Assembly (NCBI RefSeq): GCF_030316765.1
Contig: NZ_JASZYT010000015.1
Coordinates: 1-64,000, forward strand
Length of the DNA stretch: 64,000 bases
Direction: 5' to 3'
Source: Variovorax saccharolyticus
Lineage (GTDB): Bacteria > Pseudomonadota > Gammaproteobacteria > Burkholderiales > Burkholderiaceae_C
In this document: piece by piece, positions 2,374 through 61,933 of the stretch
How positions within the stretch are numbered: the first letter of the stretch is position 1
Layout: every line of letters starts with the position of its first letter
The notes under the pieces: generated by a model
Seen by the model: only the letters and a program-made list of their open reading frames with translations
Told to the model about the DNA's origin: nothing
The model's database searches: none
Translations under genes and position numbers: made by a program

Positions 2374-2409
2374 CGATTGGACGATAGTATTTGCGATACC
2401 TTCGTAGGG
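2374..2409. promoter_or_regulatory. dispersed dyad element, copy A
   Basis: Copy A of a motif that recurs across this window. The half nearest the VOC gene is ATACTATCGTCCAATCG on the minus strand (2390-2374). After a 5-base spacer, the inverted distal half ATACCTTCGTAGGG lies at 2396-2409. It sits in the 351-base gap between the divergent VOC and molybdopterin oxidoreductase genes, with its conserved half pointing at the VOC gene. Function as an operator is inferred from recurrence and position. Confidence 0.6.
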
Positions 2410-2671
2410 TGTTCTTGTGCGGGCTCTGGATCGGCCGGCGGTCCCGCTTGCAGACGTCGCGGTGAGGTGGGCTTGGCCGCCCCTGGGGAAATTCAAGCCA
2501 GATCAGGGCCTTGACGCTTGGCGTCCTTGTGCAGCGCGTTCGCGTGCAGATCGCGTGCTGCCACCGCCGTTGCTTCTTTCGGCCGATACCGAGGCGACAC
2601 GTAAGGGAGGAGCCAACCCTGTGATTTCTCGCGAAGCTGAAGTCAGCGCAGCTTGAACAAGGAGACGCGAG

Positions 2672-5026
2672 ATGACCCAGGATCGCCCGGAAGGAATTCG
2701 AGACTACGATGCACCGGCGGGAGGCTGGGGGGCCGTCAAGGCCCTGGCCCAGACAATCAAGCGGCAGCAGATCCTGGTGCAGGGTCCATCGACACTGCTT
2801 CGAGCGAATCAACCGGAAGGCTTCGATTGTCCGGGCTGCGCATGGCCCGATCCGAAACATACCTCGTCATTTGAATTCTGCGAGAACGGAGCAAAGGCCA
2901 TCACGTGGGAATCGACTTCCAGGCGGGTTGGCCCTGAGTTCTTCGCGGAGCACACCGTGAGTTCGCTCTGGCTCCAATCGGATCACTGGCTGGAAGATCA
3001 GGGCCGGTTGACCCACCCTGTGCGCTACAACGCTGCACTCGACCGATTCGAACCGGTCGAATGGCAGGACGCCTTCGATGACATCGGCACGCGATTGGGT
3101 GCGCTGGACACGCCCGACGAGGCGGAGTTCTACACCTCGGGCCGAACCTCCAACGAGGCCGCGTTCCTCTACCAGCTGTTTGTCAGGAATTTTGGCACCA
3201 ACAATTTTCCCGACTGCTCGAACATGTGCCACGAGGCCACGTCGGTCGGGCTGCCGCAATCCATAGGAATCGGGAAGGCCACCGTCACGCTGGAGGATTT
3301 CGATCACACGGACCTCATCATCTCGATGGGTCACAACCCTGGTACCAACCACCCGCGGATGATGACGACGCTCCGTGAGGTGGCCAGGCGAGGGGCCAAG
3401 ATCATCGTCTTCAACCCGATGAAGGAACGTGCCTTGGAGCGCTTCGAGGCGCCGCAGTCCCCACTCGAGATGTTGGCGCTCACGTCCACCCCGATCGCCA
3501 CCACCTACCTCCAGGTCAAGGTGGGTGGCGACGCAGCGGCCCTGAGCGGAGTTTGCAAGGCCTTGCTGAGCCTGGAAGAGCGGGCCCGAGTCCTGGACTT
3601 GTCTCCCGTCCTTGACCACACCTTCATCGAGAGCCACACGACCGGGTACGCAGCGTTGGTCGCCGGCCTCGGCGCCTTGTCGTGGACCGAGATCGAGCGA
3701 GTATCCGGGCTCTCCAGACAAGCACTCGAGGAGGTCGCTGAGGTCTATGCGCAAGCCAAGGCCACCATTGTCTGCTACGGCATGGGCGTGACCCAGCACC
3801 GGACAGGAACCACGAACGTGCAGCAAATTGCCAATCTGCTGCTGCTCAGAGGAAACATGGGCCGGCTCGGCGCAGGCATCAGCCCGTTGCGGGGCCACTC
3901 CAATGTGCAGGGCGACCGCACAGTGGGCATTTCGGAGCGGCCAACGGAGGCCTTCCTCGATCGGCTTCGTGATGTCTTTGGCTTCGAGCCGCCACGCAGG
4001 CATGGCCACTCGGTCGTTGAAGCCATCGCAGCCATGCGGGACGGCCAATCGAAAGCCATCGTCTGTCTCGGCGGCAACCTGGCGATCGCAAGTTCCGATC
4101 CCCAGGCCTGTTTCGATGCTTTCGAGAAGGTAGGCCTGGCGGTCCACATTGCCACGAAACTCAATCGGACACACCTATTGACCAAGGGAACCTGCTACCT
4201 CCTGCCATGCCTGGGGCGGACCGATCTGGACGTTCAGGCGTCGGGCAAGCAGCGCGTCACGGTCGAGGATTCCATGTCCATGGTGCACGCGTCCAGCGGC
4301 TTCCTCACGCCGCCCAGCGACCAGTTGCGGTCCGAACCTGCGATCGTGGCGGGCATTGCCAAGGCCACACTCGGGCTCAGGTCCGTCGTGGACTGGGACG
4401 CGCTGGTGGAGGACTATGACCGCATCCGCGACCTGATCGAGGCAATCCTTCCGGACTTCGAAGACTTCAACGTGCGAGTTCGCCAGCCGGGTGGGTTCCA
4501 GCTCCCAAATTCCGCCCAGCAACGCATCTGGAAGACAGCCAGTGGCAAGGCTACATTTCATGCGTTGACACAATTGGAAGAGCGTGGTGCGACGGACGAC
4601 CCGCAGGTCTTGCGGCTGACAAGCGTTCGCTCGCACGATCAGTACAACACGACGATCTACGGCCTAGACGACCGATACCGGGGCGTCTTCGGGCGCCGGG
4701 ACGTCTTGTTCCTCAACGAGGCAGAACTGACACGGCTTGGCATGAAGGAAGGCGACGTCGTCGACGTCAGAACCGCATTGGCGAATTCGCGCGCCGATCG
4801 AGTCGTTCAAGGCCTGATGCTGGTGCGCCACGACCTTCCGGATGGGTGCTGCGCATCCTACTACCCGGAGAGCCAGCCCCTCATTGCGCTGGAACACCAC
4901 GACCCGCAAAGCAAGACGCCGGCGTACAAGTCGGTTCCCGTCCGGATCGTGGCCGCCGCCTCGGGCAGGGCTCTGCCGATCACAGTCGATCGCGCCGGAG
5001 TGATGGGCCGGACATCTGTCGGATGA
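2672..5026 (+). CDS. FdhF/YdeP-type molybdopterin oxidoreductase
   Basis: The 784-residue protein belongs to the bis-MGD oxidoreductase superfamily and most resembles the YdeP-like group rather than a classical formate dehydrogenase. The N-terminus carries a single CPGC pair (Cys53, Cys56) instead of a full four-cysteine ferredoxin-type cluster motif. The central part has SNMCHE (Cys186) and GHNPGTNHPRM. The segment GVTQHRTGTTNVQQIANLLLLRGNMGR is typical of the cofactor-binding domain, and the C-terminal molydop_binding domain includes RSHDQYNTTIYGLDDRYRG when read in pieces. AAGGAG upstream supports the start. Its stop overlaps the ATG of the next gene (ATGA at 5023-5026), a formate/nitrite channel, so formate is a plausible substrate, although YdeP proteins are linked mainly to acid resistance. 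Confidence 0.88.
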   Translation: MTQDRPEGIRDYDAPAGGWGAVKALAQTIKRQQILVQGPSTLLRANQPEGFDCPGCAWPDPKHTSSFEFCENGAKAITWESTSRRVGPEFFAEHTVSSLWLQSDHWLEDQGRLTHPVRYNAALDRFEPVEWQDAFDDIGTRLGALDTPDEAEFYTSGRTSNEAAFLYQLFVRNFGTNNFPDCSNMCHEATSVGLPQSIGIGKATVTLEDFDHTDLIISMGHNPGTNHPRMMTTLREVARRGAKIIVFNPMKERALERFEAPQSPLEMLALTSTPIATTYLQVKVGGDAAALSGVCKALLSLEERARVLDLSPVLDHTFIESHTTGYAALVAGLGALSWTEIERVSGLSRQALEEVAEVYAQAKATIVCYGMGVTQHRTGTTNVQQIANLLLLRGNMGRLGAGISPLRGHSNVQGDRTVGISERPTEAFLDRLRDVFGFEPPRRHGHSVVEAIAAMRDGQSKAIVCLGGNLAIASSDPQACFDAFEKVGLAVHIATKLNRTHLLTKGTCYLLPCLGRTDLDVQASGKQRVTVEDSMSMVHASSGFLTPPSDQLRSEPAIVAGIAKATLGLRSVVDWDALVEDYDRIRDLIEAILPDFEDFNVRVRQPGGFQLPNSAQQRIWKTASGKATFHALTQLEERGATDDPQVLRLTSVRSHDQYNTTIYGLDDRYRGVFGRRDVLFLNEAELTRLGMKEGDVVDVRTALANSRADRVVQGLMLVRHDLPDGCCASYYPESQPLIALEHHDPQSKTPAYKSVPVRIVAAASGRALPITVDRAGVMGRTSVG

Positions 5027-5923
5027 TGGCCATGTACGCAATCACGATAGACCAGTTTGCGGACGCCGCGCGCGACAAGGTCGCCGCAATGCAGCGCTCG
5101 CCGTTCGGCTTCCTCGTCGCCGCGATGCTCGCCGGCGGGTACATCGGCATTGCGAACATCCTGGCGATCAGTTGTGCGACAGGCCTCACGCCGGGTGCTC
5201 GGCCATCGGTGCTCGGAGCAACGTTCGGCGTCGGGCTCATCCTGATCGCATTTGCCGGTGCCGAACTATTCACAGGATGCGTCATGCTGGTGGGGTTCGG
5301 TCTGACGCGCCAGGCGCTCACAGTCTCACAGGCGGGGGGCATGCTGGTGCTGGTGTGGTTCGGCAATCTCGCAGGCGCCATCGTCCTGGCGGGCCTTTTC
5401 ATCGCACGGCGGCGGGTCCGTCCTGCCCGATGGCGGCGTCTACCTCAACGCACTCGCCCTGCACAAGGTCAACGCACCCGTCATCGCACTGACGGCCCGC
5501 GGAATCCTGTGCAACCGGCTGGTCTGCCTGGCTCTCTGGACCAGCGCGCGCATTGCGGGTGACGCGGCCAAATGCATCGTCCTCGCGTGGTTGTTGCTTG
5601 CTTTTGTGGCGGCAGGATTCGAGCATTCCGTCGCCAACATGACGTCGCTCGCGATCGACCTGCTGGGTCCGACACCAGCGATCTCGATGGCTGGAGCACT
5701 GCGGCACTTGTTCTGGGTGAGCACGGGCAACGTCGCTGGCGCTACATTGTTCGTGGTCGGCGGGTATCTGCTCGCCTCTCGCTCCGAAAGGCGGGAACCG
5801 GTCCCATCCAGGGATCGTCTACGCGCGCCGCTACGAACGCGGCCAGACGCGCATTTACTCGGAACGGGCGCAACAACAACCCGCTTGAACGCCGGCCGGT
5901 CATCGGCCTCGTTGAACCGCTGA
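5023..5923 (+). pseudogene. formate/nitrite transporter (FNT) family, frameshifted
   Basis: The gene starts at an ATG that overlaps the stop of the molybdopterin oxidoreductase, which suggests translational coupling. The first part (LAGGYIGIANILAISCATGL, then ELFTGCVML) is a clear FNT pentameric channel N-terminus. The frame is lost in the CGGCGGCGGG run near 5405-5413. The family continues one frame over with GGVYLNALALHK, RGILCNRLVCLALW and FVAAGFEHSVANM, reading to 5923. Joining the two frames gives a normal-length six-helix channel. Either the gene is inactivated by a one-base change or the assembly has an indel in this GC repeat. Confidence 0.85.
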
Positions 5924-5955
5924 GCCCCAACGGACAGATGCTGGCGGCGAACCAT

Positions 5956-6300: not shown

Positions 6301-6315
6301 CACATCCGAATCCAT

Positions 6316-12593: not shown

Positions 12594-13768
12594 GAAGTGC
12601 TTTCGAAACGGAGCCGAATGAGAACGGGGAGGGTTGGTCGAACTCCGAGATCGACCTTCTGGTGAGTCAAGCATAGGAGCCGTGTGGTCATCAGGCTATT
12701 GACCTTTCGTATCGGTTTTTCTGGACATCAGGACCAGGGCCGGAACCTCCCTTCACAATCATCGGCGCAAGGTCTCGCGCCGGCCCTGGGTCCTGCCGTC
12801 GATGCAGCTCGGAAGAGGCGCGGGCGCGACGAACGGAATCTCTCTCAGCATGCCTGCGACGTGAAATCGAACACACCGGTCACCTGCCATGGCAATCAGG
12901 TGAAGAAGGATCCGACCGACTCGAAATCGAGCAAGAATCGTCATGTTGGCGGGGTGTGAAGAGGGTGCGCGCCGAGAGCCGAATGGGTTCGGCGGAAGAA
13001 GCGAATCACTTTCAGCGCAATACCCACGGTGCTGATGAGACCACGTGCGAGAAGTCGCATCAATTGTCTGAAGGTATCGATAGGCCGTTGAAGCCGACCT
13101 TGCCGGTCGCGTGGGTCGAAACCGACGAGGCGTCACCTTCCTGGTCCGAACCGACAACTGCAACCGACGATTCTCATGCCCGAGTCCCATCTCAGGCCGA
13201 TGCTCGCAATTTCTTCAACGTGGCGCGCACTGAGCGCATCGCACGGTTCTGCGCGGCGACGTGGCGGACGGCCCGCACTATCGGGGTGCTTGGCACCTGC
13301 AAGATTTCGCCGTGCCGTTGTGGCCTTAGGCGGCGGGTCGGATGGCAGTGTGGATTCGGCGGCAGTCACTTGGTGATTCGGGTCGTCTGCACCGCCTTCG
13401 CTTCAACACACTTCTGGCCTGCCGCCACGTTCACTATCCATGGGAAATCACGCAGACGAGTACCACGACGCGTTGCACCTGCGGCGCGTCGCTTGTCGGG
13501 CCGCTTGCGATGAAACGTTCCGTCGCGAACGAGGCACGCTGGTCATGCTTGACTCGCTGGCACGGAACCGGCTGGCGCCACTGTCGGTCCGTGGGGGTGC
13601 GAAAGAGTTTGGCGCTATGACATCCACATCGGCTTCCGCTTGCTCGCTGAAGGCAAGCCGCGCACGTGGCTACGCCGTCAGAGACGGTCGCCAAGGATCG
13701 GTGGTCTTGCTGGTCGGGCTGTCGACCAGGACCCGTTCAGGCCCGGTCAGGTGCAACACACTCCGGCG
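12594..13768. other. 1.2-kb stretch without a convincing gene
   Basis: Several frames of 60-185 codons overlap here on both strands, but none shows a domain, a good start or coding-type composition. The region may be decayed sequence. It contains a one-sided match to the dispersed dyad motif at 13061-13077 in an orientation pointing to the LuxR-type gene. Confidence 0.5.
13061..13077. promoter_or_regulatory. dispersed dyad element, degenerate half-site
   Basis: On the minus strand this reads ATACCTTCAGACAATTG, matching most positions of the gene-proximal consensus half AYACCWTCGTSCAATGG. No matching distal half is visible. It is about 470 bases upstream of the LuxR-type gene, much farther than in the other copies, so it may be vestigial. 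Confidence 0.3.
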
Positions 13769-37390: not shown

Positions 37391-37429
37391 CCATTGCACC
37401 AAGGTATAGCCGACACCTTCGTCCAATGG
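37391..37429. promoter_or_regulatory. dispersed dyad element, copy B
   Basis: One of the two most symmetric copies. The distal half CCATTGCACCAAGGTAT lies at 37391-37407, a 5-base spacer follows, and the gene-proximal half ACACCTTCGTCCAATGG lies at 37413-37429. It ends 52 bases before the epoxide hydrolase start and points towards it. Confidence 0.7.
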
Positions 37430-37481
37430 ACCGGCGCCTTCTCGTTTGGTCTGATTTCGTTCCCCAAACAAGGATTCGGCC

Positions 37482-38810
37482 ATGACCACTTCCTCATCCC
37501 TGACCCGGCGCGACTTTGTTGCTGGTTCGACCGCGGCGCTTTCCGCCGGCCCCCTCGTCCTCGCCTCGACGCTGCAACCTCATCCGGCCAACGCAGCCGC
37601 TGCGACCGAACGCAACAAGCAGGCATCCGGCTCGGATGCGATCCGACCGTTCCGTCCGAGCTTTTCGCAAGGCGAACTGACGGACCTGCGGCGGCGCATC
37701 AAGGCGACCAAATGGCCGTCACGCGAAACGGTCACCGATGCATCGCAGGGTGTGCAGTTGGCGACGACCCAGGCGCTCGCGCGCTATTGGGCGACCGCCT
37801 ATGACTGGCGCAAATGCGAGGCCAAGCTGAATGCGTGGCCGCAGTTCATGACCGAGATCGACGGGCTGGACATCCACTTCATCCATGTTCGGTCGACCCA
37901 TCGGAACGCGCTGCCGCTGATCATCACGCATGGGTGGCCCGGTTCGATCATCGAGCAGCTGAAGATCATCGGGCCATTGACGAATCCAACCGCCCACGGC
38001 GGCAACGCATCCGACGCTTTCGATGTCGTGATTCCGTCGCTTCCGGGCCATGGGTTCTCGGGCAAGCCAACCGCGACCGGTTGGGACCCGATCCGGATCG
38101 CGCGGGCGTGGACCGTGCTGATGAAGCGCCTGGGCTACAAGCAATTCGTGGCGCAAGGCGGTGATTGGGGCAATGCGGTCTCCGAGCAGATGGCCGTGCA
38201 GGCTCCCCCGGAATTGCTCGGCATTCACACGAACATGCCAGCCACCGTGCCAGACGACGTTGCCAAGGCGCTCCAGTTCGGCAACCCGCCGCCGGCGGGT
38301 CTCTCGGCGGACGAGAAGCACGCGTTCGATCAGCTCGATTTCTTCTACAAGCATGGTGTCGCCTACGCGCAGGAGATGGGAAACCGTCCGCAGACGCTGT
38401 ACGGCATCGAGGATTCGCCGATCGGGCTCGCCGCCTGGATGCTCGATCATGACGCGCGCAGCTACGCACTGATCGCGCGCGTCTTCAACGGCCAGTCGGA
38501 GGGTCTCACGCGAGACGACATCCTCGACAACATCACCCTCTACTGGTTGACGACGACGGGCGTCTCGTCGGCGCGCCTGTACTGGGAAAGCAAGCTGCCC
38601 TTCTTCGCTCCGAAGAACCTGTCGATTCCCGTTGCCGTCAGCGTATTTCCGGACGAGATCTATGCTGCCCCGCGCAGCTGGACGGAGCGGGCGTATCCCA
38701 AGCTCGTCTACTTCAACAAGGTCGACAAAGGTGGCCACTTCGCGGCGTGGGAGCAGCCTCAGCTCTTTGTGTCGGAGCTGCGTGCGGGCTTCAGGTCGCT
38801 GCGCGGCTGA
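37482..38810 (+). CDS. exported epoxide hydrolase (EHN-type alpha/beta hydrolase)
   Basis: The 442-residue protein has a twin-arginine leader ([18 protein letters not shown]), an EHN domain ([23 protein letters not shown]) and an alpha/beta hydrolase core. The core has oxyanion motif HGWPGS (His150), nucleophile Asp228 in GGDWG and catalytic His419 in [10 protein letters not shown]. These are the marks of microsomal-type epoxide hydrolases, which open epoxides to diols. The leader suggests a periplasmic location. A dyad element sits 52 bases upstream. Confidence 0.92.
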
Positions 38811-41615: not shown

Positions 41616-41987
41616 ATGCATGCTCAGTTGGTAGTATCGGTAGTAGATGATGACGAGTCGGTTCGCGAGTCGCTGCCTCCTCTCGTGACCGCGTTTGGCT
41701 ACGCCGCGCGTTCGTTCTCGTCAGCGCTGGAGTTTCTTGCATCCGACGGCATCGAGGGGACCGACTGCCTGATCCTCGATATCGCGATGCCAGGCATGTC
41801 GGGCCCAGACCTTCATCTGGAACTGGGGCGACGTGGATGCCGTGTACCGGTCATCTTCATCACGGCCCACAGGGATGAGTCCCTTCGGCAGCGCCTGCTT
41901 CGACAAGGGGCTGTCGAGTGTCTGTTCAAGCCCTTCAGTGACGTCGATATGCTTCAGGCGTTGAAGGCTGCCACGACGGCACCCTGA
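41616..41987 (+). CDS. single-domain response regulator (FixJ-type receiver)
   Basis: The 123-residue protein is a stand-alone receiver with the acidic pocket VVDDDESVRESL, phospho-acceptor Asp55 in LILDIAMPGMSG, Thr in FITAH and Lys105 in FKPF. It has no output domain. It lies 32 bases before a full FixJ-like regulator, so the two may share a phosphorelay. No histidine kinase gene is adjacent; the only kinase in the window is at 51157-56793. Confidence 0.93.
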   Translation: MHAQLVVSVVDDDESVRESLPPLVTAFGYAARSFSSALEFLASDGIEGTDCLILDIAMPGMSGPDLHLELGRRGCRVPVIFITAHRDESLRQRLLRQGAVECLFKPFSDVDMLQALKAATTAP

Positions 41988-42019: not shown

Positions 42020-42688
42020 ATGCACACGAGGATCGAAAATGACAAACCGCAATCGCTGGCTGAGGCGCAGCCCACGCCCATCGTGTTTGTGGTCGACGAC
42101 GACATCTCGATTCGCGAATCGCTGGAGCTGTTGATCCGATGTGTGGGATGGGTGCCTGAGGGCTTTGCCTCCGCGAAGGAGTTTCTGGCCCGCCCCCGGA
42201 CGATTGCACCCAGCTGCCTGCTGCTTGATGTCAACCTTCCAGATCTCAACGGCCTGGATCTGCAAAAGCAAGTTGCCGCCGATCGCATGGACATGCCGAT
42301 CATCTTCATCACCGGCTACGGCGACATTCCGATGACTGTCCAGGCGATGAAGGCCGGCGCCTTCGAGTTTCTGACCAAGCCCTTTGACGACCAAGTACTC
42401 GTGAGCACGATCCAGAAAGCGATCGAGCGAAGTCGCGCTGCCCTCGACGACGAGGGGGAGATGCGGGCGCTCGCAGACCGCCATGCTTCGCTGAGCCGCC
42501 GCGAGCGGGAAGTGATGGGTCTGGTGATCACCGGGCTGTTGAACAAGCAGGTGGCGGGCGAACTCGGAATCAGCGAGATCACCGTGAAGGCCCATCGCGG
42601 CAGCATGATGCGCAAGATGAAGGCCGCGTCACTGCCGAACCTGGTGAACATGGCAGCGAGGCTGGGGCTCCCGGGTCCGGCCCGATAG
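42020..42688 (+). CDS. FixJ/NarL-type response regulator with LuxR HTH
   Basis: The 222-residue protein has a receiver with VVDDDISIRESL, Asp70 in LLLDVNLPDLNGLDL, FITGYGDIPM and TKPFDD. A GerE HTH follows: LSRREREVMGLVITGLLNKQVAGELGISEITVKAHRGSMM in pieces. It is probably activated by phosphorylation and binds DNA as a dimer. It is a candidate to bind the dispersed dyad elements, which is inference only. A short 8-bp repeat covers its stop codon and the following bases. Confidence 0.94.
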   Translation: MHTRIENDKPQSLAEAQPTPIVFVVDDDISIRESLELLIRCVGWVPEGFASAKEFLARPRTIAPSCLLLDVNLPDLNGLDLQKQVAADRMDMPIIFITGYGDIPMTVQAMKAGAFEFLTKPFDDQVLVSTIQKAIERSRAALDDEGEMRALADRHASLSRREREVMGLVITGLLNKQVAGELGISEITVKAHRGSMMRKMKAASLPNLVNMAARLGLPGPAR

Positions 42689-43351: not shown

Positions 43352-43673
43352 TTCAAACTCCTTAGCTGGTGGTGGCCAGGCATCGAAAGATTTCGCCTGG
43401 AAGAAACCGGTCTTCGCGACGCGCAGTGAAGACGCAACGCCATGACAACAGAAACCGGGTGGCGCATCCATTGGACGATGGTGTTGCAGATACCTTGGTA
43501 TCGGCCGTCCCTCGCGTCGTGGTATGGCCAATCGATACGCGTTGCGGGGTGGACGCTTGGAAGAGTCTCGTGGTTGAAGGGGGCGAATGCGCTCGACGAA
43601 TTGCCATCCGCTGGTTGGGGCAATTCACGCGTGGAGACCGGGAAGCGATCCATGCGAGGCCGGCGTAAGAAAC
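43352..43673. other. 322-base gap holding dyad copy C
   Basis: No gene is supported. The dispersed dyad element occupies 43468-43506, and the rest contains only short unconvincing frames. Confidence 0.45.
43468..43506. promoter_or_regulatory. dispersed dyad element, copy C
   Basis: On the minus strand the gene-proximal half is ACACCATCGTCCAATGG (43484-43468). After a 5-base spacer, the distal inverted half lies at 43490-43506 (ATACCTTGGTATCGGCC on the plus strand). It points towards the repeat-containing exported protein gene. Confidence 0.65.
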
Positions 43674-44171: not shown

Positions 44172-44698
44172 ATCGGCTCCTTGGTGGGTCTCATGCTCCT
44201 TCCAGGATGGACGAGAGCACTTCGATGCAGATAGGGATTCAATAGAAATGCCACCTGTGACGCCATTGCACGATGGTGTCAGTCTCCCACTTGGACGTCC
44301 GAAGGTAGAGGGTTTGATCCGCCATCGGTCCAACGAAAGAGAGAACTTGGGCCGAACGGTGCAAGTTCAGGTCGGCCACGCGTGGAGCCGCCGGAATTCG
44401 TCGGTGCAGGCGTGCAGAAACGCCGCTGCCGCGCGAGAGGGTCCGGTTCTCCCGCTGGAGCGATGGCCTCAATGTATTGAGGCCAGCATTCCCTCGCGGC
44501 TCGACAGTGCGAACTACGAATTCGAACGCATCCCGTGCCCAAGGGGGGTAGTGCCGCTGCCTGAGAAGGCCAGGATCTCGTGCTCGGCGGGTGGCTCGCG
44601 AGTTCAACTCCGTGCAGTCCGCCGTACGCTGCGTTACCGATCGCGCCCCGCACGGCGCCGACCTGGTGACGCTGGTTCAGACGCCCGATCAGGCACAC
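44172..44698. other. 527-base gap holding dyad copy D
   Basis: Overlapping frames on both strands lack starts, domains or natural composition. The only recognisable element is the dyad copy at 44263-44300. Confidence 0.45.
44263..44300. promoter_or_regulatory. dispersed dyad element, copy D (weak distal half)
   Basis: The gene-proximal half reads ACACCATCGTGCAATGG on the minus strand (44279-44263), one base from copy C. The distal half (44285-44300, TCCCACTTGGACGTCC) is poorly conserved. It points to the MbcA/ParS-like gene. Confidence 0.55.
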
Positions 44699-51156: not shown

Positions 51157-54100
51157 GTGGTGGATGCCCATGGAGACGTCCCGCTGGCTCGTCGCAACAT
51201 GCTAGGAGAGACTCTGAACCTGTCAGGCTACACGCTGGAGTTGCTCCGCCGGGACAGCGAGTTCACGCTCCTCCGAGGCCGGGCCACGGCGAGCGCGACT
51301 ACCTCGCCGAACACAGTCCTGGTAGCGACACCGACGCCTGAGCAACCACGGACCGATCGCCTGCGCATGCTGGAGCACGAGTTCAACCTGCGGAGCGAGC
51401 TCGAATCGAGGTGGGCCATCAGACCGATCGCCATGACGCGTTGGCAGGGACGCACCGCCCTGGTGCTGGAGGACGTGCCGGGCGAGCCCCTTGATCGCCT
51501 GCTCGAAGCGGCGCCGACAGGAACTGCCTCGGTTTTGTCCCGCTCTGGCAAGGCCCCGATGGCGCTTGAGCTTTGTCTTCGCCTCGTGGCGGGGCTCGCA
51601 GGTGCCATCGGCGAAGTGCACCGTCGTGGCATCGTTCACAAGAACGTCAAACCGGCAAACGTCCTCGTCGACGTTTCGACGAGCCACGTCTGGTTGACCG
51701 GGTTCGGGATTGCTTCGAGGCTGCCGCGCCAACGTCAAGTGCCCGTGCCCCCGGAGACCATCGCGGGCACGCTCGCCTACATGGCGCCCGAGCAGACCGG
51801 GCGGATGAACCGTTCCATAGACGGCCGCAGCGACCTGTATGGGCTCGGAATCGTCATGTACGAGATGCTGACCGGCACGCTGCCGTTCGCCGCCAGAGAC
51901 CCGATGGAGTGGGTGCACTGCCACGTGGCCCGCCAGCCACCGCCGCCAGAGCTGAGGGCGGCCAATGTTCCTGCGCAGGTCTCCGCGATCGTCCTGAAGC
52001 TGCTCGCAAAGACGGCCGAGGATCGCTACCAGACGGCCGCGAGCCTCGAACGCGATCTTCGACGGTGCTTCGCGCAACTGGAGCGCGAAGGCCGCATCTC
52101 CAGTTTTCCATTGGGTGAGCACGATATCCCTGATCGCCTGCTGGTCCCGGAGAAGCTCTACGGCCGGAAGGTAGAAACAGCACATCTTCTGGCCGCCTTC
52201 GAGCGCAGCGTTCATGGCGGTGCGCCTGAATTCGTCTTGGTCTCCGGCTCCGCAGGTATGGGAAAGTCATCGCTGGTGAACGAACTCCACAAGGTGCTTG
52301 TGCCGTCGCGAGGGCTCTTCGCTGCGGGCAAGTTCGATCAGTTCAAGCGCGACATCCCGTATGCAACGGTGGCACAGGCTTTTCAAGGCCTGCTTCGCTC
52401 GTTGTTGACCAAGAGCGAGGACGAGTTTGTCCAATGGCGTGACGCGCTCCGCGAGGCGCTCGGACCGAATGGCCAACTCATGGTGGACCTGGTCCCTGAA
52501 CTCAAGCTGATCATTGGTGATCAGGCACCAGTGCCGGCGTTGTCGCACCAGGATGCGCAGCGCAGGTTCCAACTGGTCTTTCGACGCTTCCTGGCAGTGT
52601 TCGCCACGCCAGAGCATCCGCTGGCTCTGTTTCTCGACGACCTTCAATGGCTGGACTCGGCGACGCTTGATCTCCTCGAAGACCTCCTGGCGCATCCGGA
52701 CGCGCGTCACCTGCTCCTGGTTGGTGCCTATCGTGACAACGAGGTCACGTCGTCCCATCCGCTGCGACGCATGCTCGATGAAGTGCGCAAGGTGAATTCC
52801 TCCGTCCACGAGGTTGCCCTGGTGCCCCTGATTCGCGAGAGCGTGACCCAAATCGTTGCCGACTCGCTGCATTGCGGCCAGGAGCATGCCGTCGGACTCG
52901 CGGAGCTGGTACATGAGAAGACCGGCGGCAATCCATTCTTCGTGGTTCAGTTTCTTGGAGCGCTTGCCGAGGAGGGGATGGTCCGCTTCGATCCAGACAC
53001 CCCGCGCTGGATATGGGACCTCGACCGCATTCGCGCCAAGGGATACACGGACAACATCGCCGACCTCATGATTGGCAAGCTCCGCGGCCTCCCTCCGCGC
53101 TCCCTCGAGGTCCTGCAGTTGCTCGCCTGTCTCGGAAGCAGTGCCGAACTCGAACTGCTGTCGATGGTACGCGACGAGCCGGACGCCAAGCTTCTGGACG
53201 ATCTGCATGAAGCACTTCGAACCGACCTCATCCTGTATTCGGAGGGCTCCTACCGTTTTCTTCATGACCGCGTTCAAGAGGCGGCGTACTCACTGATTCC
53301 GCAGGCCATGCGTCCTGCCTTGCACTTGCAGATCGGCAGGCGATTGGCCCAGATGATCCCCCAGGAAAAGCGGGACGACGCGATCTTCGAGATCGTCAAT
53401 CAGTTGAACCGAGGCGCCTCGTTGATCGCGTCGCCAGCTGAAAGGGCGCACCTCGCGGAACTCAACCTGGTGGCCGGCAAGCGGGCGAAGGCCTCGACGG
53501 CATATGCATCGGCCCTGGGGTACCTCGTTGCCGGTGCCGAGGTGCTGTCCGACGCGGGCTGGGACCGGCGGCCCTACCTCAGGTTCGCACTGGAACTGCA
53601 CCGGGCAGAGTGCGAGTTCCTGACGGGCGAGCTGTCGGCAGCCGAGGGCCGCCTGACTGCACTCGTGTCTCGCGCCATCGAGCCCATGGACCAGGCCGCG
53701 GTGGCTTGCCTGCGCATCGATGTCTATACCACGCTGAACCACAGCCATCGAGCGATCGACATCTGCCTTGACTACCTTTGGCGTCGAGGCGTCGAGTGGT
53801 CACCGAATCCGACGCAGGAGGAGGCGCGTCGCGAGTACGAGCGAATGCTGGTTCTCCTCGACGGCCGCGAGATCGAGGAACTCATCGACCTGCCCCTGAT
53901 GAGCGATCCGCAATCCGTGGCCATGCTGGAGGTGCTGAACAGGGCTGTCACACCGGCCTCGTTGACGGACGAGAACCTTCTGTCCTTGCTCCTCTGGCGC
54001 ATGGTCAATCTCAGCCTCGAGCATGGCAATACCGACGCGTCGTGTCTGGCTTACGTCCACGCCGCCAGGATTGCCGGGGCCCGCTTCGGCAACGACAATG

Positions 54101-56793
54101 CCGGACTTCGCTTCGGGCGCCTCGGCTTCGACCTGGTCGAGCGGCGCGGCCTGCGGCGGTTCGAGGCCAGGACGCGGCTGAGTTACGCGGTCTCGGTGGC
54201 CACGCGTACGTCGCCATTGCGAGAAGTACGCAGCCTCATCCGCGACGCATTCGATGCCGCATGTGCCGCCGGTGACCTCACGTATGCGGCGATCTCGTTT
54301 CAACACCTCATCTCCAATCTACTGGCCGCCGGCGATCCGCTGACAGACGTGCAGCTCGAAGCCGAGCGCGGCCTCGCGTTCGCGCAGCGTGCCGGCTTTC
54401 GTCTGGTGGTCGATGTCATCGCCATTCAGCTGGCGTTGGTGCGCATGCTAAGAGGCCTGACACCCGCGTTCGGCCACCTCGATGACGCGCAATGCCATGA
54501 AGCTCAGATCGAGAAGCGTCTTTCGAGCAGTCCTGGGCAAGCCTTCGTCGAATTTCGATACTGGACCCGGAAGCTCCAGGCGCGCTTCGTCGGTGGAGAC
54601 CCTCGAGCCGCCCTTCAAGCCTCCTCGCAGGCGTGGCGGCTGATTTGGACATCGCCATCCTCCCTCGAAGCCGCCGAGGCTCACTTTTACGGGGCGCTGA
54701 GCCACGCCGCCGCCTGCCGCGACGCGTCGTCGGGCGGACGCCAGCAGCATGTTGGAGCGTTGCGCGAGCATCACACGCATCTCGTGGAGCTTTCCCGGAA
54801 CTGCTCCGAGAGCTTCCAGCATCGCGCCCTGCTGGTCGGCGCGGAACTCGCCCGCGTCGAGGGCCGCGAGAGGGAGGCCGAGCGCTTGTACGAGACCGCG
54901 ATTCGCTCGGCGCGCGAGAACGGATTTGTCCACAACGAAGCGCTCGCAAATGAATTGGCCGGACGCTTTCATGCGGCGCGCGATTTCCCGACCATCGCGC
55001 TGGCGTACTTGCGCAACGCGCGCTGGGGCTACGTTCGCTGGGGCGCCGGAGGAAAAGTGCGGCAGCTCGACCAGTTGTACCCGCAGTTGGGCACGGAGGA
55101 GTCCAGTGCTTTTGACGGCACGATCGCGGCACCGACCGAGCACCTTGACCTCACCACCTTGATCCGGGTGTCTCAGGCGATCTCTCGCGAGGTGCTGCCC
55201 GAGAATCTGATCGACACCTTGATGCGTTCGGCCATCGAGCACGCGGGTGCACAGGGTGCGCTGCTCATTCTCGCAAAGGGGGCACAGCTGCGGATCGCGG
55301 CTGAAGCGACCACACTGAGCGATGCGGTGAGCGTGCAGCTGGTCGATCAGCCGGCCGACGGCGAGAAGCTGCCACAGACTGTCTTGCGTTACGTGCTGCA
55401 TACGCAGGAAAGCGTCGTTCTGAACGACGCATCGGCCACTTCTCCTCATTCGTCAGACTCTTACGTGGCGCGCCGTCAGGTGCGCTCCGTGCTGTGCCTG
55501 CCTCTGGCGAATCAGTCGAAGCTCGTCGGCGTCCTCTACTTGGAGAACAATCTGGCGCCGAGCGTGTTTCTGCCGGCGCGCATCGCTGTGCTCAAGGTGC
55601 TGGTCTCGCAGGCCGCCATCTCGCTCGAGAATGCCCGTCTGTACCGCGATCTTGCAGAGCGCGAGGCCCGGATTCGTCGCCTGGTCGATGCCAACATCAT
55701 CGGCATCTTTATCTGGGAACTTGCGGGTCCCGTGCTCGAAGCCAATGACGCCTTCCTGGAAATGGTGGGCTACGAGCGCGAAGACATCTCCACGGGCAGG
55801 CTGCGATGGACCGACCTGATCCCACCGGAGTTTCGCGAGCTCGCCCGACAGACCTGGGCGCCGCAGCTTCTGACCAGCAAGACGCTGCAGCCCTTCGAGG
55901 CGGAGTATGTTCGCAAGGACGGCTCGCGCGTCCCGGTTCTCATCGGTGTCGCCATCTTCGAGGAGCCCGGCGAACGCGGGGTGGCCTATGTGCTGGATTT
56001 GACGGAGCGCAGGCGCGCGCACGATGCACTGTCCCAGGCGAGCACCAAGCTCGAACACATGTCCCGGGTCATGTCGATCAGTGCCCTTACCGCATCGATC
56101 GCCCACGAGATCAGCCAGCCCCTTTCGGGCATTCTCGTCAACGCCGCTACCGGCTTGCGTTTGCTGGACGGTGTACCGGTGGACACCGAAGGCGTGCGAA
56201 TGACGATTCAGCGTACGAAGCGCGACGCCGAACGAGTCTCCCATGTCGTAGATCGGCTCAGGGCACTCTTTAGCAAGAGGGATTTCGCGCCGGAACCCCT
56301 CGATCTGAACGAGGCGGCGAGGGAGGTTCTCGTCCTTTCCGCGAGCGACTTGCAAAGGCGACAGGTGGTCGTGCTCCAGGAACTCGATGAGGATCTTCCG
56401 CATGTCATGGGAGACCGCATCCAGTTGCAGCAGGTCATCCTGAACCTGGTTCGCAACGCCGCTGAAGCGATGGAGAGCGCAGTCGGTCGAGCGCGCCAGC
56501 TGTGGGTTCGGACCGCGCTCGATGCGAGTCGCAAACGCGTGACCTTGAGCGTCCGCGATGTCGGAGAGGGACTGCCGTCGCAACAACCGGAAGCCCGGTT
56601 CGAGGCCTTCCAATCAACCAAGGCGGGCGGTATGGGCATCGGGCTATTCGTCAGCCGCTCGATCGTCGAGCGGCACAGCGGCCGTCTTTGGGCTGAATCC
56701 AATCTCGATGCGCCCGGTGCCACCTTCTCTTTCACGGTACCGTGCGCCCCGAGCGCTGCCTGGAGCACGCCGCCTGAATCGGCCGCTCCGTAG
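51157..56793 (+). CDS. giant pseudokinase/AAA/GAF/PAS/histidine kinase hybrid
   Basis: The 1,878-residue protein combines a Ser/Thr-kinase-like domain (about 20-300), an AAA/predictor-type ATPase with Walker A GSAGMGKSS and Walker B LALFLDDLQW (about 330-650), a long helical repeat region (about 650-1320), a GAF domain (about 1332-1495), PAS (about 1509-1620) and a histidine kinase with His1650 in IAHEISQP, N-box QQVILNLVRNAAEAM and G-boxes DVGEGLP and GGMGIGLFVSR. In the kinase-like domain the usual lysine is Ala57, HRD is HKN (Asn163) and DFG is GFG (Gly182), so phosphotransfer there is unlikely. The start may be GTG 51157 or ATG 51199. Confidence 0.92.
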   Translation: MVDAHGDVPLARRNMLGETLNLSGYTLELLRRDSEFTLLRGRATASATTSPNTVLVATPTPEQPRTDRLRMLEHEFNLRSELESRWAIRPIAMTRWQGRTALVLEDVPGEPLDRLLEAAPTGTASVLSRSGKAPMALELCLRLVAGLAGAIGEVHRRGIVHKNVKPANVLVDVSTSHVWLTGFGIASRLPRQRQVPVPPETIAGTLAYMAPEQTGRMNRSIDGRSDLYGLGIVMYEMLTGTLPFAARDPMEWVHCHVARQPPPPELRAANVPAQVSAIVLKLLAKTAEDRYQTAASLERDLRRCFAQLEREGRISSFPLGEHDIPDRLLVPEKLYGRKVETAHLLAAFERSVHGGAPEFVLVSGSAGMGKSSLVNELHKVLVPSRGLFAAGKFDQFKRDIPYATVAQAFQGLLRSLLTKSEDEFVQWRDALREALGPNGQLMVDLVPELKLIIGDQAPVPALSHQDAQRRFQLVFRRFLAVFATPEHPLALFLDDLQWLDSATLDLLEDLLAHPDARHLLLVGAYRDNEVTSSHPLRRMLDEVRKVNSSVHEVALVPLIRESVTQIVADSLHCGQEHAVGLAELVHEKTGGNPFFVVQFLGALAEEGMVRFDPDTPRWIWDLDRIRAKGYTDNIADLMIGKLRGLPPRSLEVLQLLACLGSSAELELLSMVRDEPDAKLLDDLHEALRTDLILYSEGSYRFLHDRVQEAAYSLIPQAMRPALHLQIGRRLAQMIPQEKRDDAIFEIVNQLNRGASLIASPAERAHLAELNLVAGKRAKASTAYASALGYLVAGAEVLSDAGWDRRPYLRFALELHRAECEFLTGELSAAEGRLTALVSRAIEPMDQAAVACLRIDVYTTLNHSHRAIDICLDYLWRRGVEWSPNPTQEEARREYERMLVLLDGREIEELIDLPLMSDPQSVAMLEVLNRAVTPASLTDENLLSLLLWRMVNLSLEHGNTDASCLAYVHAARIAGARFGNDNAGLRFGRLGFDLVERRGLRRFEARTRLSYAVSVATRTSPLREVRSLIRDAFDAACAAGDLTYAAISFQHLISNLLAAGDPLTDVQLEAERGLAFAQRAGFRLVVDVIAIQLALVRMLRGLTPAFGHLDDAQCHEAQIEKRLSSSPGQAFVEFRYWTRKLQARFVGGDPRAALQASSQAWRLIWTSPSSLEAAEAHFYGALSHAAACRDASSGGRQQHVGALREHHTHLVELSRNCSESFQHRALLVGAELARVEGREREAERLYETAIRSARENGFVHNEALANELAGRFHAARDFPTIALAYLRNARWGYVRWGAGGKVRQLDQLYPQLGTEESSAFDGTIAAPTEHLDLTTLIRVSQAISREVLPENLIDTLMRSAIEHAGAQGALLILAKGAQLRIAAEATTLSDAVSVQLVDQPADGEKLPQTVLRYVLHTQESVVLNDASATSPHSSDSYVARRQVRSVLCLPLANQSKLVGVLYLENNLAPSVFLPARIAVLKVLVSQAAISLENARLYRDLAEREARIRRLVDANIIGIFIWELAGPVLEANDAFLEMVGYEREDISTGRLRWTDLIPPEFRELARQTWAPQLLTSKTLQPFEAEYVRKDGSRVPVLIGVAIFEEPGERGVAYVLDLTERRRAHDALSQASTKLEHMSRVMSISALTASIAHEISQPLSGILVNAATGLRLLDGVPVDTEGVRMTIQRTKRDAERVSHVVDRLRALFSKRDFAPEPLDLNEAAREVLVLSASDLQRRQVVVLQELDEDLPHVMGDRIQLQQVILNLVRNAAEAMESAVGRARQLWVRTALDASRKRVTLSVRDVGEGLPSQQPEARFEAFQSTKAGGMGIGLFVSRSIVERHSGRLWAESNLDAPGATFSFTVPCAPSAAWSTPPESAAP

Positions 56794-58506: not shown

Positions 58507-58637
58507 ATTGATCTCCAGGTTGAATTCGAGGCGGCGCTATCTCACCGAAGAGATCGTGTGAGTCAGCCGTTGAGCGGGATGGGAGGTGGACAGCTGAGTC
58601 ACGTGCCTTGCTGAGTTTCGCGGCATGCAGATGCGCC

Positions 58638-59330
58638 TCAGGCAAACTGCGGTCGCGCCTCGAGCATGCGCGCGCTCGGCCCAAAGCTGGCGAATGAAGT
58701 CGGCTTCTGCTCGTCGACCAGGCCGCGATTGACCGCGATGCTGGCGGCTTGCGTGCGGGAAATGGCACCGAGCTTGGTCATGATGGCGCTCACGTGCGAC
58801 TTCACCGTCCCCAGCTCGATGGCGAGGTGCCTGGCGATCTCCTTGTTGCAATGACCCGTCGCGACGAGCCTTAACACTTGGTTCTCGCGCAGGGTGAGGA
58901 CTGCCCCGGCGAGGCTGTCAGCCATGCGCTGCGCCGCGACGGGGCAGAGGTACCTTGCGCCGTTGCCCACTGCTCTGACAGCGTCGACGAGCTCAACCAG
59001 CGAGCCGCCCAGCAGCAGATACCCGTGAACGCCATGCTGGACGGCGCGCCGGATATCCGCCTCGCGGTCGTTGGCGGTGAGCGCCAGGATTCTCGGTCCA
59101 GCCGCTTTCCCGTGAGCCGATTGGCGACCCTCTTGAATGAGCCGTAACGCGTTTGGATAGTCTGCGATCACTATATCGATGTGGACCGGGCGGCACGTTG
59201 CGTCGTCACTGCCGTCGACGAAAATCTGAAGGTCTTCATGCTGGCGCAACGCCGTGACGAGACCGGTGCAAACGATAGGGTCAGGGTACGTGACCATGAC
59301 GTTCAATGGACGAATCGGAAGGCGGTTCAT
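58638..59330 (-). CDS. LuxR/NarL-type response-regulator-like transcription factor (second copy)
   Basis: The 230-residue protein has a receiver-like domain with TYPDPIV and a candidate Asp57 in IVIADYPN, and a GerE HTH, LRENQVLRLVATGHCNKEIARHLAIELGTVKSHVSAIM in pieces. It is a paralogue of the regulator at 11853-12593. GGAG before the ATG fixes the start. A copy of the dispersed dyad element lies about 98 bases upstream and points to it, so it may be part of, or may control, that regulon. Confidence 0.9.
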   Translation of the reverse strand: MNRLPIRPLNVMVTYPDPIVCTGLVTALRQHEDLQIFVDGSDDATCRPVHIDIVIADYPNALRLIQEGRQSAHGKAAGPRILALTANDREADIRRAVQHGVHGYLLLGGSLVELVDAVRAVGNGARYLCPVAAQRMADSLAGAVLTLRENQVLRLVATGHCNKEIARHLAIELGTVKSHVSAIMTKLGAISRTQAASIAVNRGLVDEQKPTSFASFGPSARMLEARPQFA

Positions 59331-59427
59331 TTGACTTCTCCTAAGATGATGGGGAATTGCCGCGTCGGCCCTGGGCAGAACCGGCGCGGCGCGATAACTG
59401 GCATATGACTACAAGGAAGAATGGAAG

Positions 59428-59466
59428 GCCATTGCACGTTGGTATTGCTGACACCTATGCATCGGC
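59428..59466. promoter_or_regulatory. dispersed dyad element, copy E
   Basis: On the minus strand the gene-proximal half is ATACCAACGTGCAATGG (59444-59428). After a 5-base spacer, the distal half lies at 59450-59466 (ACACCTATGCATCGGCC on the plus strand). It lies in the gap before the LuxR-type gene and points to it. Confidence 0.65.
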
Positions 59467-59504
59467 CACCTGGCGTTGAACGAGTCGAGCCATGGTCACA
59501 GGGG

Positions 59505-60737: not shown

Positions 60738-60763
60738 GGCTTCTGTTCCGAGGGTTGTTGCGT

Positions 60764-61675
60764 TCAATCACGCCTGATAGGTCCTGCAACTGCCGAAGCA
60801 TTGGAAAGAAACCTGCGTATGTGGGTCGCTGCGACGTCGACCGCCTCATCCAGTGCAAAGTGGCCGGCGTCCAGAAGATGAACTTCGGCATCCGGCAAAT
60901 CTCGCGCGTAGGCCCTTGCGCCGTCCACCGTGAACGATGGATCGTGCCTTCCCCAAAGCACCAGGGTCGGCGGGCGGTTGTCTCGCAGCCAGGCCTGCCA
61001 TTGCCCATAGGAAGCCACGTTGGTACGGTAGTCGTAGAACAGGTCTGATTGGATCTGATCCTGCCCTGGGCGGGAGAGCGCAGCGAACTCGTCGGTCCAG
61101 GTGTCGGGGTTGTAGCGATCTGGATGCGGACTCGTGCCCACGTGGCGAATCCTTGCGCCCTCCAATGAAGTGAAGGCAGAGAGAACGCTCGCTTCGTGCG
61201 CTTCGCGATCGGCCCAGTACGCGCGCCTTGCCTCCCACATCGGACCCAGTCCTTCCTCGTGCGCCACTGCGTTCTGGACAATCAAGCCGCGAATGCGCTC
61301 GGGTCGGCGCTGTGCATGGCGCAGGCCGATCGGACCTCCATAGTCTTGCATATAGAGAAAGTACCCTTTCAGATTCAACGCATCGGTGAATCCGTCGACG
61401 ATCCGTGCAAGGTGGTCGAAGGTATAGGCGAATTCAGTTGCGGCTGGCGCATCGCTGTGACCAAAGCCAGGATAGTCCGGTGCGATCAGGTGGTATTGAT
61501 CGGCCAGAAGAGGAATCAGCGTATCGAACATCCTGGAGGACGACGGGAATCCATGCAAAAGCATTAGCGTCGGAGCCTGCGCCGGGCCGGCCTCTCGATA
61601 GAAGATGTTCAGTCCCTCGACCTCGACGGTTCGATAGCGAGTGGTCGCATGGCTCACGGTGGCGTGCTTTGGCAT
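60764..61675 (-). CDS. alpha/beta hydrolase (dehalogenase/epoxide hydrolase-like)
   Basis: The 303-residue protein has the oxyanion motif LLHGFPSSSRMF, a nucleophile-type elbow YMQDYGG with Asp111, an acid in LWGRHDPSF and the catalytic histidine in DAGHFALDE. An Asp nucleophile indicates the haloalkane dehalogenase/epoxide hydrolase branch. GGAG six bases before the ATG at 61675 fixes the start. The gene at 10987-11846 is a broken paralogue. Dyad copy F lies upstream and points to it. Confidence 0.9.
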   Translation of the reverse strand: MPKHATVSHATTRYRTVEVEGLNIFYREAGPAQAPTLMLLHGFPSSSRMFDTLIPLLADQYHLIAPDYPGFGHSDAPAATEFAYTFDHLARIVDGFTDALNLKGYFLYMQDYGGPIGLRHAQRRPERIRGLIVQNAVAHEEGLGPMWEARRAYWADREAHEASVLSAFTSLEGARIRHVGTSPHPDRYNPDTWTDEFAALSRPGQDQIQSDLFYDYRTNVASYGQWQAWLRDNRPPTLVLWGRHDPSFTVDGARAYARDLPDAEVHLLDAGHFALDEAVDVAATHIRRFLSNASAVAGPIRRD

Positions 61676-61803
61676 GGGGGACTCCATTGGCGGTGCGGTA
61701 GATTCGCAGATCGAGGCTTCCGCTGATCGGTCCGATCGACAAGGTCGATTGACGACTCGATCTCTGGCGGCATGGCAATGACACCAGACGATTGACCTCA
61801 GGT

Positions 61804-61843
61804 CGATAAGACGATGGTGTCGATCAACACCTTCGAACTGGGC
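61804..61843. promoter_or_regulatory. dispersed dyad element, copy F
   Basis: On the minus strand the gene-proximal half is ACACCATCGTCTTATCG (61820-61804). A 6-base spacer (one longer than usual) separates it from the distal half ACACCTTCGAACTGGGC (61827-61843, plus strand). It points towards the alpha/beta hydrolase gene. Confidence 0.55.
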
Positions 61844-61894
61844 TTCACCGTGACACGGTATCTGAATTCGAGTGGAGCAATTGATCCCAGTCCT

Positions 61895-61933
61895 TCCGTG
61901 ATCTGAAGAATCCGCGATACCTTCGTGCAATGG
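61895..61933. promoter_or_regulatory. dispersed dyad element, copy G
   Basis: The gene-proximal half ATACCTTCGTGCAATGG lies at 61917-61933 on the plus strand, with a partly matching distal half at 61895-61911 (TCCGTGATCTGAAGAAT). It points towards the porin gene. It overlaps the earliest possible start codon at 61925, which argues for a later start. Confidence 0.6.

What the first reader, a model, noticed from the sequence alone, without database searches (positions are those of the whole stretch)
2374..61933. Replicon-wide family of oriented 39-bp dyads: a possible undescribed regulon
Seven full or near-full copies (2374, 37391, 43468, 44263, 59428, 61804, 61895) and one half-site (13061) share the half AYACCWTCGTSCAATGG, a 5-6 base spacer and an inverted second half. 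All lie in intergenic gaps. In every full copy the better conserved half faces the nearby start codon, about 50-155 bases away. The genes are a VOC protein, an exported epoxide hydrolase, a repeat-rich exported protein, an MbcA/ParS-like protein, a LuxR-type regulator, an alpha/beta hydrolase and a porin. The consistent orientation argues for an operator with directional activation rather than a mobile repeat. The LuxR/FixJ-type regulators here are candidate binders (inference).
Basis: partly seen in the sequence, partly recalled or inferred. Interest (0 to 1): 0.85.

Follow-up and report, generated by a model that had tools for sequence, protein, structure and literature searches.

The report
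Shared switch of a FixJ-type regulon
The repeated DNA element is real: it is most likely the docking site, built into promoters, of a FixJ-type response regulator encoded in the same stretch, and the same regulator and element recur together in soil bacteria of several phyla in front of detoxification-type genes; I found no description of it in print.

Summary
The observation largely holds and goes further than stated. The 17-bp half occurs 8 times in the window (0.72 expected); 13 of 18 genome matches at up to 2 mismatches lie on contig C7. C7 has 13 oriented sites, all intergenic and all pointing at a downstream gene. They are followed at a fixed distance by an extended -10-like element, so the box is centred near -41, where class II activators sit. 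The weaker upstream half is a second box, AYACCnnGGTRT, 5-6 bp away. A model made only from Variovorax sites finds 94 sites in 56 of 78 loci fetched by FixJ homology from other genera and phyla (shuffled 0.4), but none in 13 Variovorax loci with FixJ paralogs of other recognition helices. The LuxR at 58638 is more likely a target. Recurrent targets are epoxide hydrolases, VOC proteins, SDRs and thioredoxin-like proteins. Binding, activation and signal are inferred. One Variovorax genome (G073) has sites but no recognisable regulator. Filed as a new subfamily and operator within NarL/FixJ.

The parts
2346..2407 (-). composite site: proximal 17-mer box 2374-2390, extended -10-like element 2348-2356, distal box 2396-2407 (10 of 12); upstream of VOC/glyoxalase gene 1646-2320
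   Evidence: Pfam Glyoxalase
37391..37457 (+). composite site with full dyad: distal half 37391-37407, proximal box 37413-37429, -10-like element downstream; upstream of exported EHN-type epoxide hydrolase 37482-38810
   Evidence: Pfam EHN
43440..43501 (-). composite site: proximal box 43468-43484, distal box 43490-43501 (12 of 12); upstream of small protein 42944-43351 (no Pfam match)
44235..44281 (-). composite site: proximal box 44263-44279, no clear distal box; upstream of 43674-44048 (no Pfam match)
59401..59462 (-). composite site: proximal box 59429-59445, distal box 59451-59462 (10 of 12); upstream of LuxR-type regulator 58638-59330
61776..61838 (-). composite site: proximal box 61804-61820 (3 mismatches), distal box 9 of 12 with 6-bp spacer; upstream of alpha/beta hydrolase 60764-61675
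   Evidence: Pfam Abhydrolase_1
61915..61961 (+). composite site: proximal box 61917-61933, no clear distal box; upstream of OprB-type porin 62159-63433
   Evidence: Pfam OprB
13033..13079 (-). weak half-site (17-mer 13061-13077); doubtful member
   Evidence: 21.5 bits in the 47-nt matrix; no close downstream gene in my calls
42020..42688 (+). FixJ/StyR-type response regulator, recognition helix ISEITVKAHRG: proposed binder of the sites
   Evidence: Pfam Response_reg + GerE; StyR best solved relative; linkage
41616..41987 (+). single-domain CheY-like receiver, directly upstream of the FixJ gene; conserved partner
   Evidence: Pfam Response_reg E 1e-22; a short receiver lies within 3 genes of FixJ in 60 of 75 other loci
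51157..56793 (+). Pkinase-AAA_16-GAF-PAS-HisKA-HATPase giant kinase: one candidate sensor of the same system (inference)
   Evidence: same kind of gene beside FixJ in Variovorax G038 and M. ciceri
58638..59330 (-). LuxR-type regulator without a recognised receiver domain: probable regulon member rather than the binder
37482..38810 (+). target: EHN epoxide hydrolase; its orthologs are targets in other phyla
1646..2320 (-). target: VOC/glyoxalase-fold protein

Best explanation
The sites are activator-dependent promoters of one regulon controlled by the FixJ/StyR-type response regulator at 42020-42688 and its orthologs (subfamily with recognition helix ISEITVKAHRG). A sensor kinase, with the CheY-like receiver 41616-41987 as partner, phosphorylates the regulator; its dimers bind the proximal 17-bp box AYACCWTCGTSCAATGG (about -49 to -33, centre about -41, overlapping a poor -35) and, where present, the distal box AYACCnnGGTRT 5-6 bp upstream, and recruit RNA polymerase to the extended -10 TG-N-TKTGAT. 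This switches on detoxification-type genes (epoxide hydrolases, VOC proteins, SDR, thioredoxin-like, hydrolases, and here a LuxR regulator and a porin). Shown by computation: the composite site, its fixed geometry, orientation, intergenic placement, and its linkage to this FixJ subfamily across phyla. Inferred: binding, phosphorylation, activation rather than repression, which kinase, and the signal.
For: Fixed geometry: in 73 sites picked by the 17-mer alone (up to 1 mismatch), strict TGNTNNNAT starts at offset 17 in 23, at 18 in 1 and at 36 in 1, at no other offset from 0 to 49. Regulator link: a 47-nt matrix from Variovorax sites finds 94 sites (>=14 bits) in 56 of 78 non-Variovorax loci fetched only by FixJ homology; shuffles 0.4, reversed and column-shuffled matrices 0; 17-mer matrix alone (>=16 bits) 65 of 78 loci against 1.9; 0 of 13 loci with Variovorax FixJ paralogs of other helices. 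Of 22 plasmid records found by FixJ homology after the matrix was made I scanned 7: 5 of 7 have 17-mer sites >=16 bits. Genus: 8 of 8 genomes with a KAHRG-helix FixJ seen in these calls have the motif at E<=1e-3, 2 of the 93 others do. Distal box (>=10/12) at spacer 4-6 in 61 of 94 sites against 2.2 of 141 shuffled at any spacer. StyR, the best solved relative, activates from STY2 at about -40 (PMC2442086, abstract and passages).
Against: G073 has 6 motif hits at E<=0.05 (5 at 1e-3 or better) but no FixJ of this subfamily: its four matches at E<=1e-40 are 36-42% identical with other helices. G011 and G007 have weaker sites with only a 45% identical FixJ (KIHRG helix) on the same contig. G262 has a strong site (E 2e-9) and no such FixJ, in an 84% complete assembly. 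22 of 78 loci have no 47-nt site, 13 of 78 no 17-mer site at 16 bits; two of seven plasmid loci none. At least 48 of the 73 17-mer-only sites lack the strict -10 pattern. The LuxR gene is also correlated with the motif inside the genus (8 of 12 genomes; Fisher p 1e-7). The 78 loci were chosen by FixJ, so only the controls, not FixJ presence, carry weight there. No binding or expression data.
Confidence: 0.77

Rival explanations
1. The binder is the LuxR-type regulator at 58638 (or its paralog at 11853); 58638 has its own site upstream.
For: LuxR orthologs at 53% identity or more occur in 8 of the 10 Variovorax genomes with the motif at E<=1e-3, including G073, which has sites but no subfamily FixJ; a site precedes it here and in G004 and G073.
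Against: 4 of 12 genomes with such a LuxR have no motif hit at E<=0.05 (G043, G002, G054, G091); G062 and G011 have the motif without it; 58638 is the best C7 match of no gene called in the 78 non-Variovorax loci, 11853 of three genes in two loci at 33-35% identity, while 56 of 78 carry sites.
Confidence: 0.08
2. The same FixJ-type regulator binds but represses: a box overlapping -35 would block RNA polymerase until it is released.
For: The box covers the -35 position; StyR also represses in some arrangements of its sites (PMC2442086 abstract).
Against: The -35 under the box is poor while the extended -10 is conserved at fixed spacing, the usual layout of activator-dependent promoters (general knowledge); StyR at about -40 activates.
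Confidence: 0.1
3. The element is the -35/-10 promoter of an alternative sigma factor, not an activator operator.
For: Strict spacing between the 17-mer and the -10.
Against: 17 conserved bases plus an inverted distal box are too much for a -35; rhizobial loci keep the box with a different downstream sequence (by eye); presence follows a FixJ subfamily and its recognition helix.
Confidence: 0.04
4. A mobile or structural repeat family scattered over the island.
For: Clustering in about 90 kb of one contig; regulator relatives on plasmids.
Against: Only box, distal box and -10 positions are conserved; the bases between them are not; orientation toward starts and intergenic placement; same element before orthologous genes in other phyla.
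Confidence: 0.02

Closest known systems
StyS/StyR and TodS/TodT (styrene/toluene two-component systems; NarL/FixJ response regulators)
   Same: Best solved relative of 42020 is StyR (1yio, E 5.6e-53). Receiver + GerE domains; main site near -40; cooperative binding to two sites (PMC2442086 abstract and passages).
   Different: StyR contacts Lys175, Val176, His179 and the operator ATAAACN4GTTTAT (PMC5874301 passages) become Lys190, Ala191, Gly194 here, and the boxes are AYACCnnGGTRT / AYACCWTCGTSCAATGG. Regulon of many scattered promoters, not one catabolic operon; a CheY-like partner is added.
TdiS/TdiR (anaerobic toluene)
   Same: NarL/FixJ regulator with a palindrome just upstream of -35 (PMC5874301 passages).
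   Different: Proposed palindrome GGTGTTCGCACC; the StyR contact residues are not conserved there either (same passages).
FixL/FixJ (oxygen control of nitrogen fixation)
   Same: Second best solved relative (5xso, E 1.6e-42); NCBIfam FixJ model matches at 200 bits.
   Different: Below that model's 255-bit cut-off; no fixK/nifA-type targets among those I identified.

Membership tests
NarL/FixJ response regulators (protein 42020) | N-terminal receiver plus C-terminal GerE/LuxR HTH | tested here: met
   Response_reg 4.6e-25 and GerE 4.1e-21
NarL/FixJ response regulators (protein 42020) | Conserved receiver aspartate | tested here: met
   Asp70 invariant in 7 orthologs, aligned with the aspartate of the StyR LDM segment
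NarL/FixJ response regulators (protein 42020) | Phosphorylation-dependent DNA binding | not testable with these tools
   needs purified protein
StyR/TodT subgroup | Contact residues Lys175, Val176, His179 (PMC5874301) | tested here: not met
   aligned residues Lys190, Ala191, Gly194: one of three kept; KAHRG in 66 of 78 loci
StyR/TodT subgroup | Operator ATAAACN4GTTTAT | tested here: not met
   aligned sites show AYACCnnGGTRT and AYACCWTCGTSCAATGG
StyR-like class II promoters (works like) | Main box centred near -40 with a -10 at fixed distance | tested here: met
   strict TGNTNNNAT at offset 17 in 23 of 73 sites, 2 at all 49 other offsets together; transcription start not mapped
FixJ equivalog (NCBIfam NF006900) | Score at or above 255 bits | tested here: not met
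   200 bits

The most novel reading that the evidence does not exclude
The kinase / CheY / FixJ genes, the operator-promoters and a pool of detoxification genes form a portable regulon: regulator, box and targets have moved together between phyla (Pseudomonadota and Acidobacteriota, with single loci in Vulcanimicrobiota and Actinomycetota), the regulator-DNA code staying fixed while the -10 half was retuned to each host's RNA polymerase, all answering one shared, unknown soil signal such as reactive electrophiles.
Probability: 0.35. Interest if true: 0.78.

Novelty: new variant of a known kind. Interest (0 to 1): 0.62.

Why it matters
It gives a candidate regulator, a matrix for its operator and a target list for a two-component regulon found in soil and plant-associated bacteria of several phyla, where the annotated records I saw carry only 'response regulator' and 'epoxide hydrolase' labels. 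If right, one can predict regulon members in genomes that encode the KAHRG-helix FixJ, and the paired change of recognition helix and box is a natural data set for the NarL/FixJ DNA code. The signal is open and directly testable.

Tried and rejected
LuxR 58638/11853 as binder: rejected as general explanation though it remains open for G073. Mobile repeat: rejected. Sigma-factor promoter: rejected. Giant kinase as the universal partner: 5 of 78 loci have one over 1500 aa, whereas 57 of 75 have some related histidine kinase within 3 genes of FixJ. Nucleotide search of plasmids with window 1-24000 gave matches covering at most 8% of the query. The order-wide scan was meant as an unbiased 2x2 test but was too sparse (2 of 399 genomes on each side, G000 in both). 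The 17-mer alone is not specific: 53 of 198 relatives have a match at up to 1 mismatch, 5 of them three or more; of three loci around single matches in G023, G056 and G006 none has the composite site. Literature: searches listed no paper on this operator or regulon; the library holds open-licence PMC papers only, so this is not proof of absence. Papers seen: PMC2442086 (abstract and passages), PMC5874301 (passages); all others only as search listings with abstract starts.

Limits: gene calls are from a home-made codon-usage script. The 47 Variovorax sites were chosen with a matrix that included the -10 region, so their logo alone is partly circular; the 17-mer-only test is not, though it pools C7 and the 78 loci. 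Genome counts for the FixJ helix rest on matches shown at E<=1e-60 plus four genomes searched more loosely; weaker subfamily members elsewhere may be missed. Rows dropped: Variovorax loci L070 and L087 from the 78-locus tests; sites under 24 bits from the 47; G007 (E 0.0017) from the Fisher table, which used E<=1e-3.
Full report
What was claimed.

The observation. The half AYACCWTCGTSCAATGG with up to 3 mismatches occurs 8 times in the window against 0.72 expected. In the whole genome (7.40 Mb, 25 contigs; the window is contig C7:1-64000) there are 18 matches at up to 2 mismatches, 13 of them on C7 between 2.4 and 92.6 kb; the reversed control pattern gives 1. Leaving out 37391, which is the distal half of one dyad, and adding 61804, C7 has 13 oriented sites. 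All 13 are intergenic in my gene calls and each points at the start of a downstream gene, 52-261 nt away (52-225 in the window). The genes after the six sites beyond the window match Pfam pyridine nucleotide-disulphide oxidoreductase, EHN epoxide hydrolase, SDR, Thioredoxin_10/AhpC, YjgF-like and Hsp20.

Anatomy. Aligned by orientation, the C7 sites are followed at near-constant distance by T(C)TG-N-T(T/G)TGAT-like sequence, with departures at 44263 and 59429. In 47 Variovorax sites the 17-mer, then 15 mostly unconserved bases, then TCTGNTKTGAT stand out. Because those sites were chosen with a matrix that included this region, I repeated the test on sites chosen by the 17-mer alone: of 73 sites, strict TGNTNNNAT begins at offset 17 in 23, at offset 18 in 1, at 36 in 1 and at no other offset from 0 to 49; the rest lack the strict pattern. 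Reading TTTGAT as the -10, the 17-mer spans about -49 to -33, centre -41, and its last bases with the next ones (TSGA) form a poor -35. The upstream half is a second box, AYACCnnGGTRT: at least 10 of 12 positions in 6 of 13 C7 sites, 13 of 34 other Variovorax sites and 61 of 94 sites outside the genus, nearly always 5 or 6 bp from the 17-mer, against 2.2 per 141 in shuffled upstream sequence. So the dyad is two boxes of which the promoter-proximal one is the constant one; that explains the orientation.

Conservation in the genus. Among 198 relatives 53 have a 17-mer match at up to 1 mismatch, mostly one each; five genomes have three or more, all of one genus: G000, G004, G038, G065, G073. In the relatives with clusters the composite site stands before orthologs of C7 targets: EHN epoxide hydrolase, VOC proteins, thioredoxin-like protein, alpha/beta hydrolase, porin, the small proteins of 42944 and 43674 and the LuxR protein; in G004 also before the FixJ gene. 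Loci around single matches in G023, G056 and G006 have no composite site. Contig lengths tie G038 and G083 to V. paradoxus MEDvA23 and Variovorax sp. JS1663, so the genus is Variovorax. A profile of the 47-nt site gives E<=1e-3 hits in 10 of 101 Variovorax genomes and in 2 of 399 genomes of the order, one of them this genome, so the background is very low.

Which regulator. FixJ relatives of 42020 at E<=1e-60 occur in 16 of 101 genomes. Those with the KAHRG recognition helix are in G000, G038, G065, G004, G083, G015, G062 and G069, all eight with the motif; two of the other 93 have it (G011, G073); Fisher p 2e-10, not corrected for relatedness. The LuxR protein at 53% identity or more is in 12 genomes, 8 with the motif, Fisher p 1e-7, so within the genus alone the two candidates are not far apart; the evidence from other phyla separates them.

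Across phyla. A scan of species genomes with an alignment of seven Variovorax FixJ proteins kept the best 80 of 478 relatives, 78 of them outside Variovorax. The Variovorax-only 47-nt matrix finds 94 sites at 14 bits or more in 56 of these 78; shuffled loci average 0.4, reversed and column-shuffled matrices 0. Infernal agrees: 124 matches at E<=10, best 5e-9. The 17-mer matrix alone finds sites at 16 bits in 65 of 78, shuffled 1.9. Thirteen Variovorax loci around FixJ paralogs of 52-56% identity, whose helices read ATVKVHRGQ, DTVK.HRHN or TLQIHRG, have none. A tree (bootstrap not fully settled) puts the 59 site-linked proteins and the 13 paralogs on opposite sides of one branch (support 95/96), with 22 proteins without a site on the linked side. 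The 58638 LuxR is the best C7 match of no gene in the 78 loci. Of seven further loci taken from 22 plasmid records found by FixJ homology after the matrix was made (Cupriavidus, Mesorhizobium, Sinorhizobium, Rhizobium), five have 17-mer sites. In R. leguminosarum pR132502 one site lies 131 nt before the FixJ gene and one 66 nt before an annotated epoxide hydrolase. Rhizobial loci keep the box but show, by eye, another sequence at the -10, as expected if regulator and polymerase read separate parts. Most sites are in Pseudomonadota and Acidobacteriota; Vulcanimicrobiota (L128, 35.9 bits) and Actinomycetota (Kribbella L148, 14.3 bits) have one site-bearing locus each.

Module and targets. Directly before the FixJ gene the window has a CheY-like receiver, 41616-41987. 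In 75 other loci a short receiver lies within three genes of FixJ in 60 and a related histidine kinase in 57. M. ciceri shows PAS kinase, receiver, FixJ, trifunctional kinase and epoxide hydrolase in a row, though its locus has no site. In this window no kinase touches the pair; candidates on C7 are 51157-56793 and 86423-91966 and 72429-75491. Outside the genus 75 of 94 sites have a same-strand start within 200 nt (median 71), 27 of 94 in the opposite sense, and 2 of 94 lie inside a predicted gene. Of 80 sites with a gene start within 250 nt, 41 lead to a gene matching a C7 protein, chiefly EHN epoxide hydrolases (16), the SDR (8), the exported hydrolase (4), crotonase (3) and thioredoxin-like protein (3); 39 do not. 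Of 32 unmatched downstream genes listed I scanned 10: three cytochrome P460, and one each of DUF4331, DUF6582, OsmC, class II aldolase, carbonic anhydrase, a histidine kinase and a sigma-54 activator. Defence against reactive organic compounds or peroxides is an inference from this list.

Comparison with the known. StyR is the best solved relative and StyR-P activates from STY2 at about -40 (PMC2442086, abstract and passages), so it works like StyR. It is not a StyR/TodT member by the published contacts: Lys175, Val176, His179 and ATAAACN4GTTTAT (PMC5874301 passages) against Lys190, Ala191, Gly194 and AYACCnnGGTRT. Three papers hold one of six motif strings, none on this subject by title; further searches listed no description.

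Against. G073 carries six hits and no FixJ of this subfamily; G262 has a strong site without it in an incomplete assembly; G011 and G007 have weaker sites and a more distant FixJ; 13 of 78 loci lack even the 17-mer site, and Cupriavidus EM10 and M. ciceri lack it. The 78 loci were selected by FixJ, so FixJ presence there proves nothing; the weight lies on the contrast with shuffles and paralogs. Binding, phosphorylation and activation are untested.

Noticed in passing
window 25277-27369: Adjacent genes on one strand; the first matches ParA-type ATPases and the second reads like ParB (my reading, not searched); with GC3 of 0.772 for C7 1-95 kb against 0.848 for 95-132 kb the regulon region looks like a former plasmid or island.
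   Followed up: partly
window 58638-59330 and 11853-12593: Two related LuxR-type regulators with a GerE domain but no receiver recognised by Pfam; in some other Variovorax genomes two relatives lie side by side (G098, G007).
   Followed up: partly
L060/L061 (G073 C1 762-783 kb): Six motif sites but no FixJ of the linked subfamily found in a genome rated 100% complete; either an assembly gap or another regulator reads the same box.
   Followed up: partly
L079, L081, L085, L101 (Mesorhizobium): Same box and distal box, but a different recurrent sequence where the -10 lies in beta- and gammaproteobacteria; a possible lineage-specific -10.
   Followed up: no
L134, L138, L135, L118, L103, L146 (Paraburkholderia/Burkholderia): FixJ helices KVHRR/KMHRR/KVHRK with shifted box variants (CAATTGAG, AAACCATTGTGCAATGG): possible co-change of helix and operator.
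   Followed up: partly
window 51157-56793 and C7 86423-91966: Two Pkinase-AAA-GAF-PAS-HisKA proteins of 1878 and 1847 residues in one region.
   Followed up: no
single 17-mer matches in many Variovorax genomes, e.g. L028, L029, L030: The sequence ACGCCTTCGTGCAATGG recurs as a single match in many genomes of the genus; probably a conserved stretch unrelated to the regulon, not examined.
   Followed up: no
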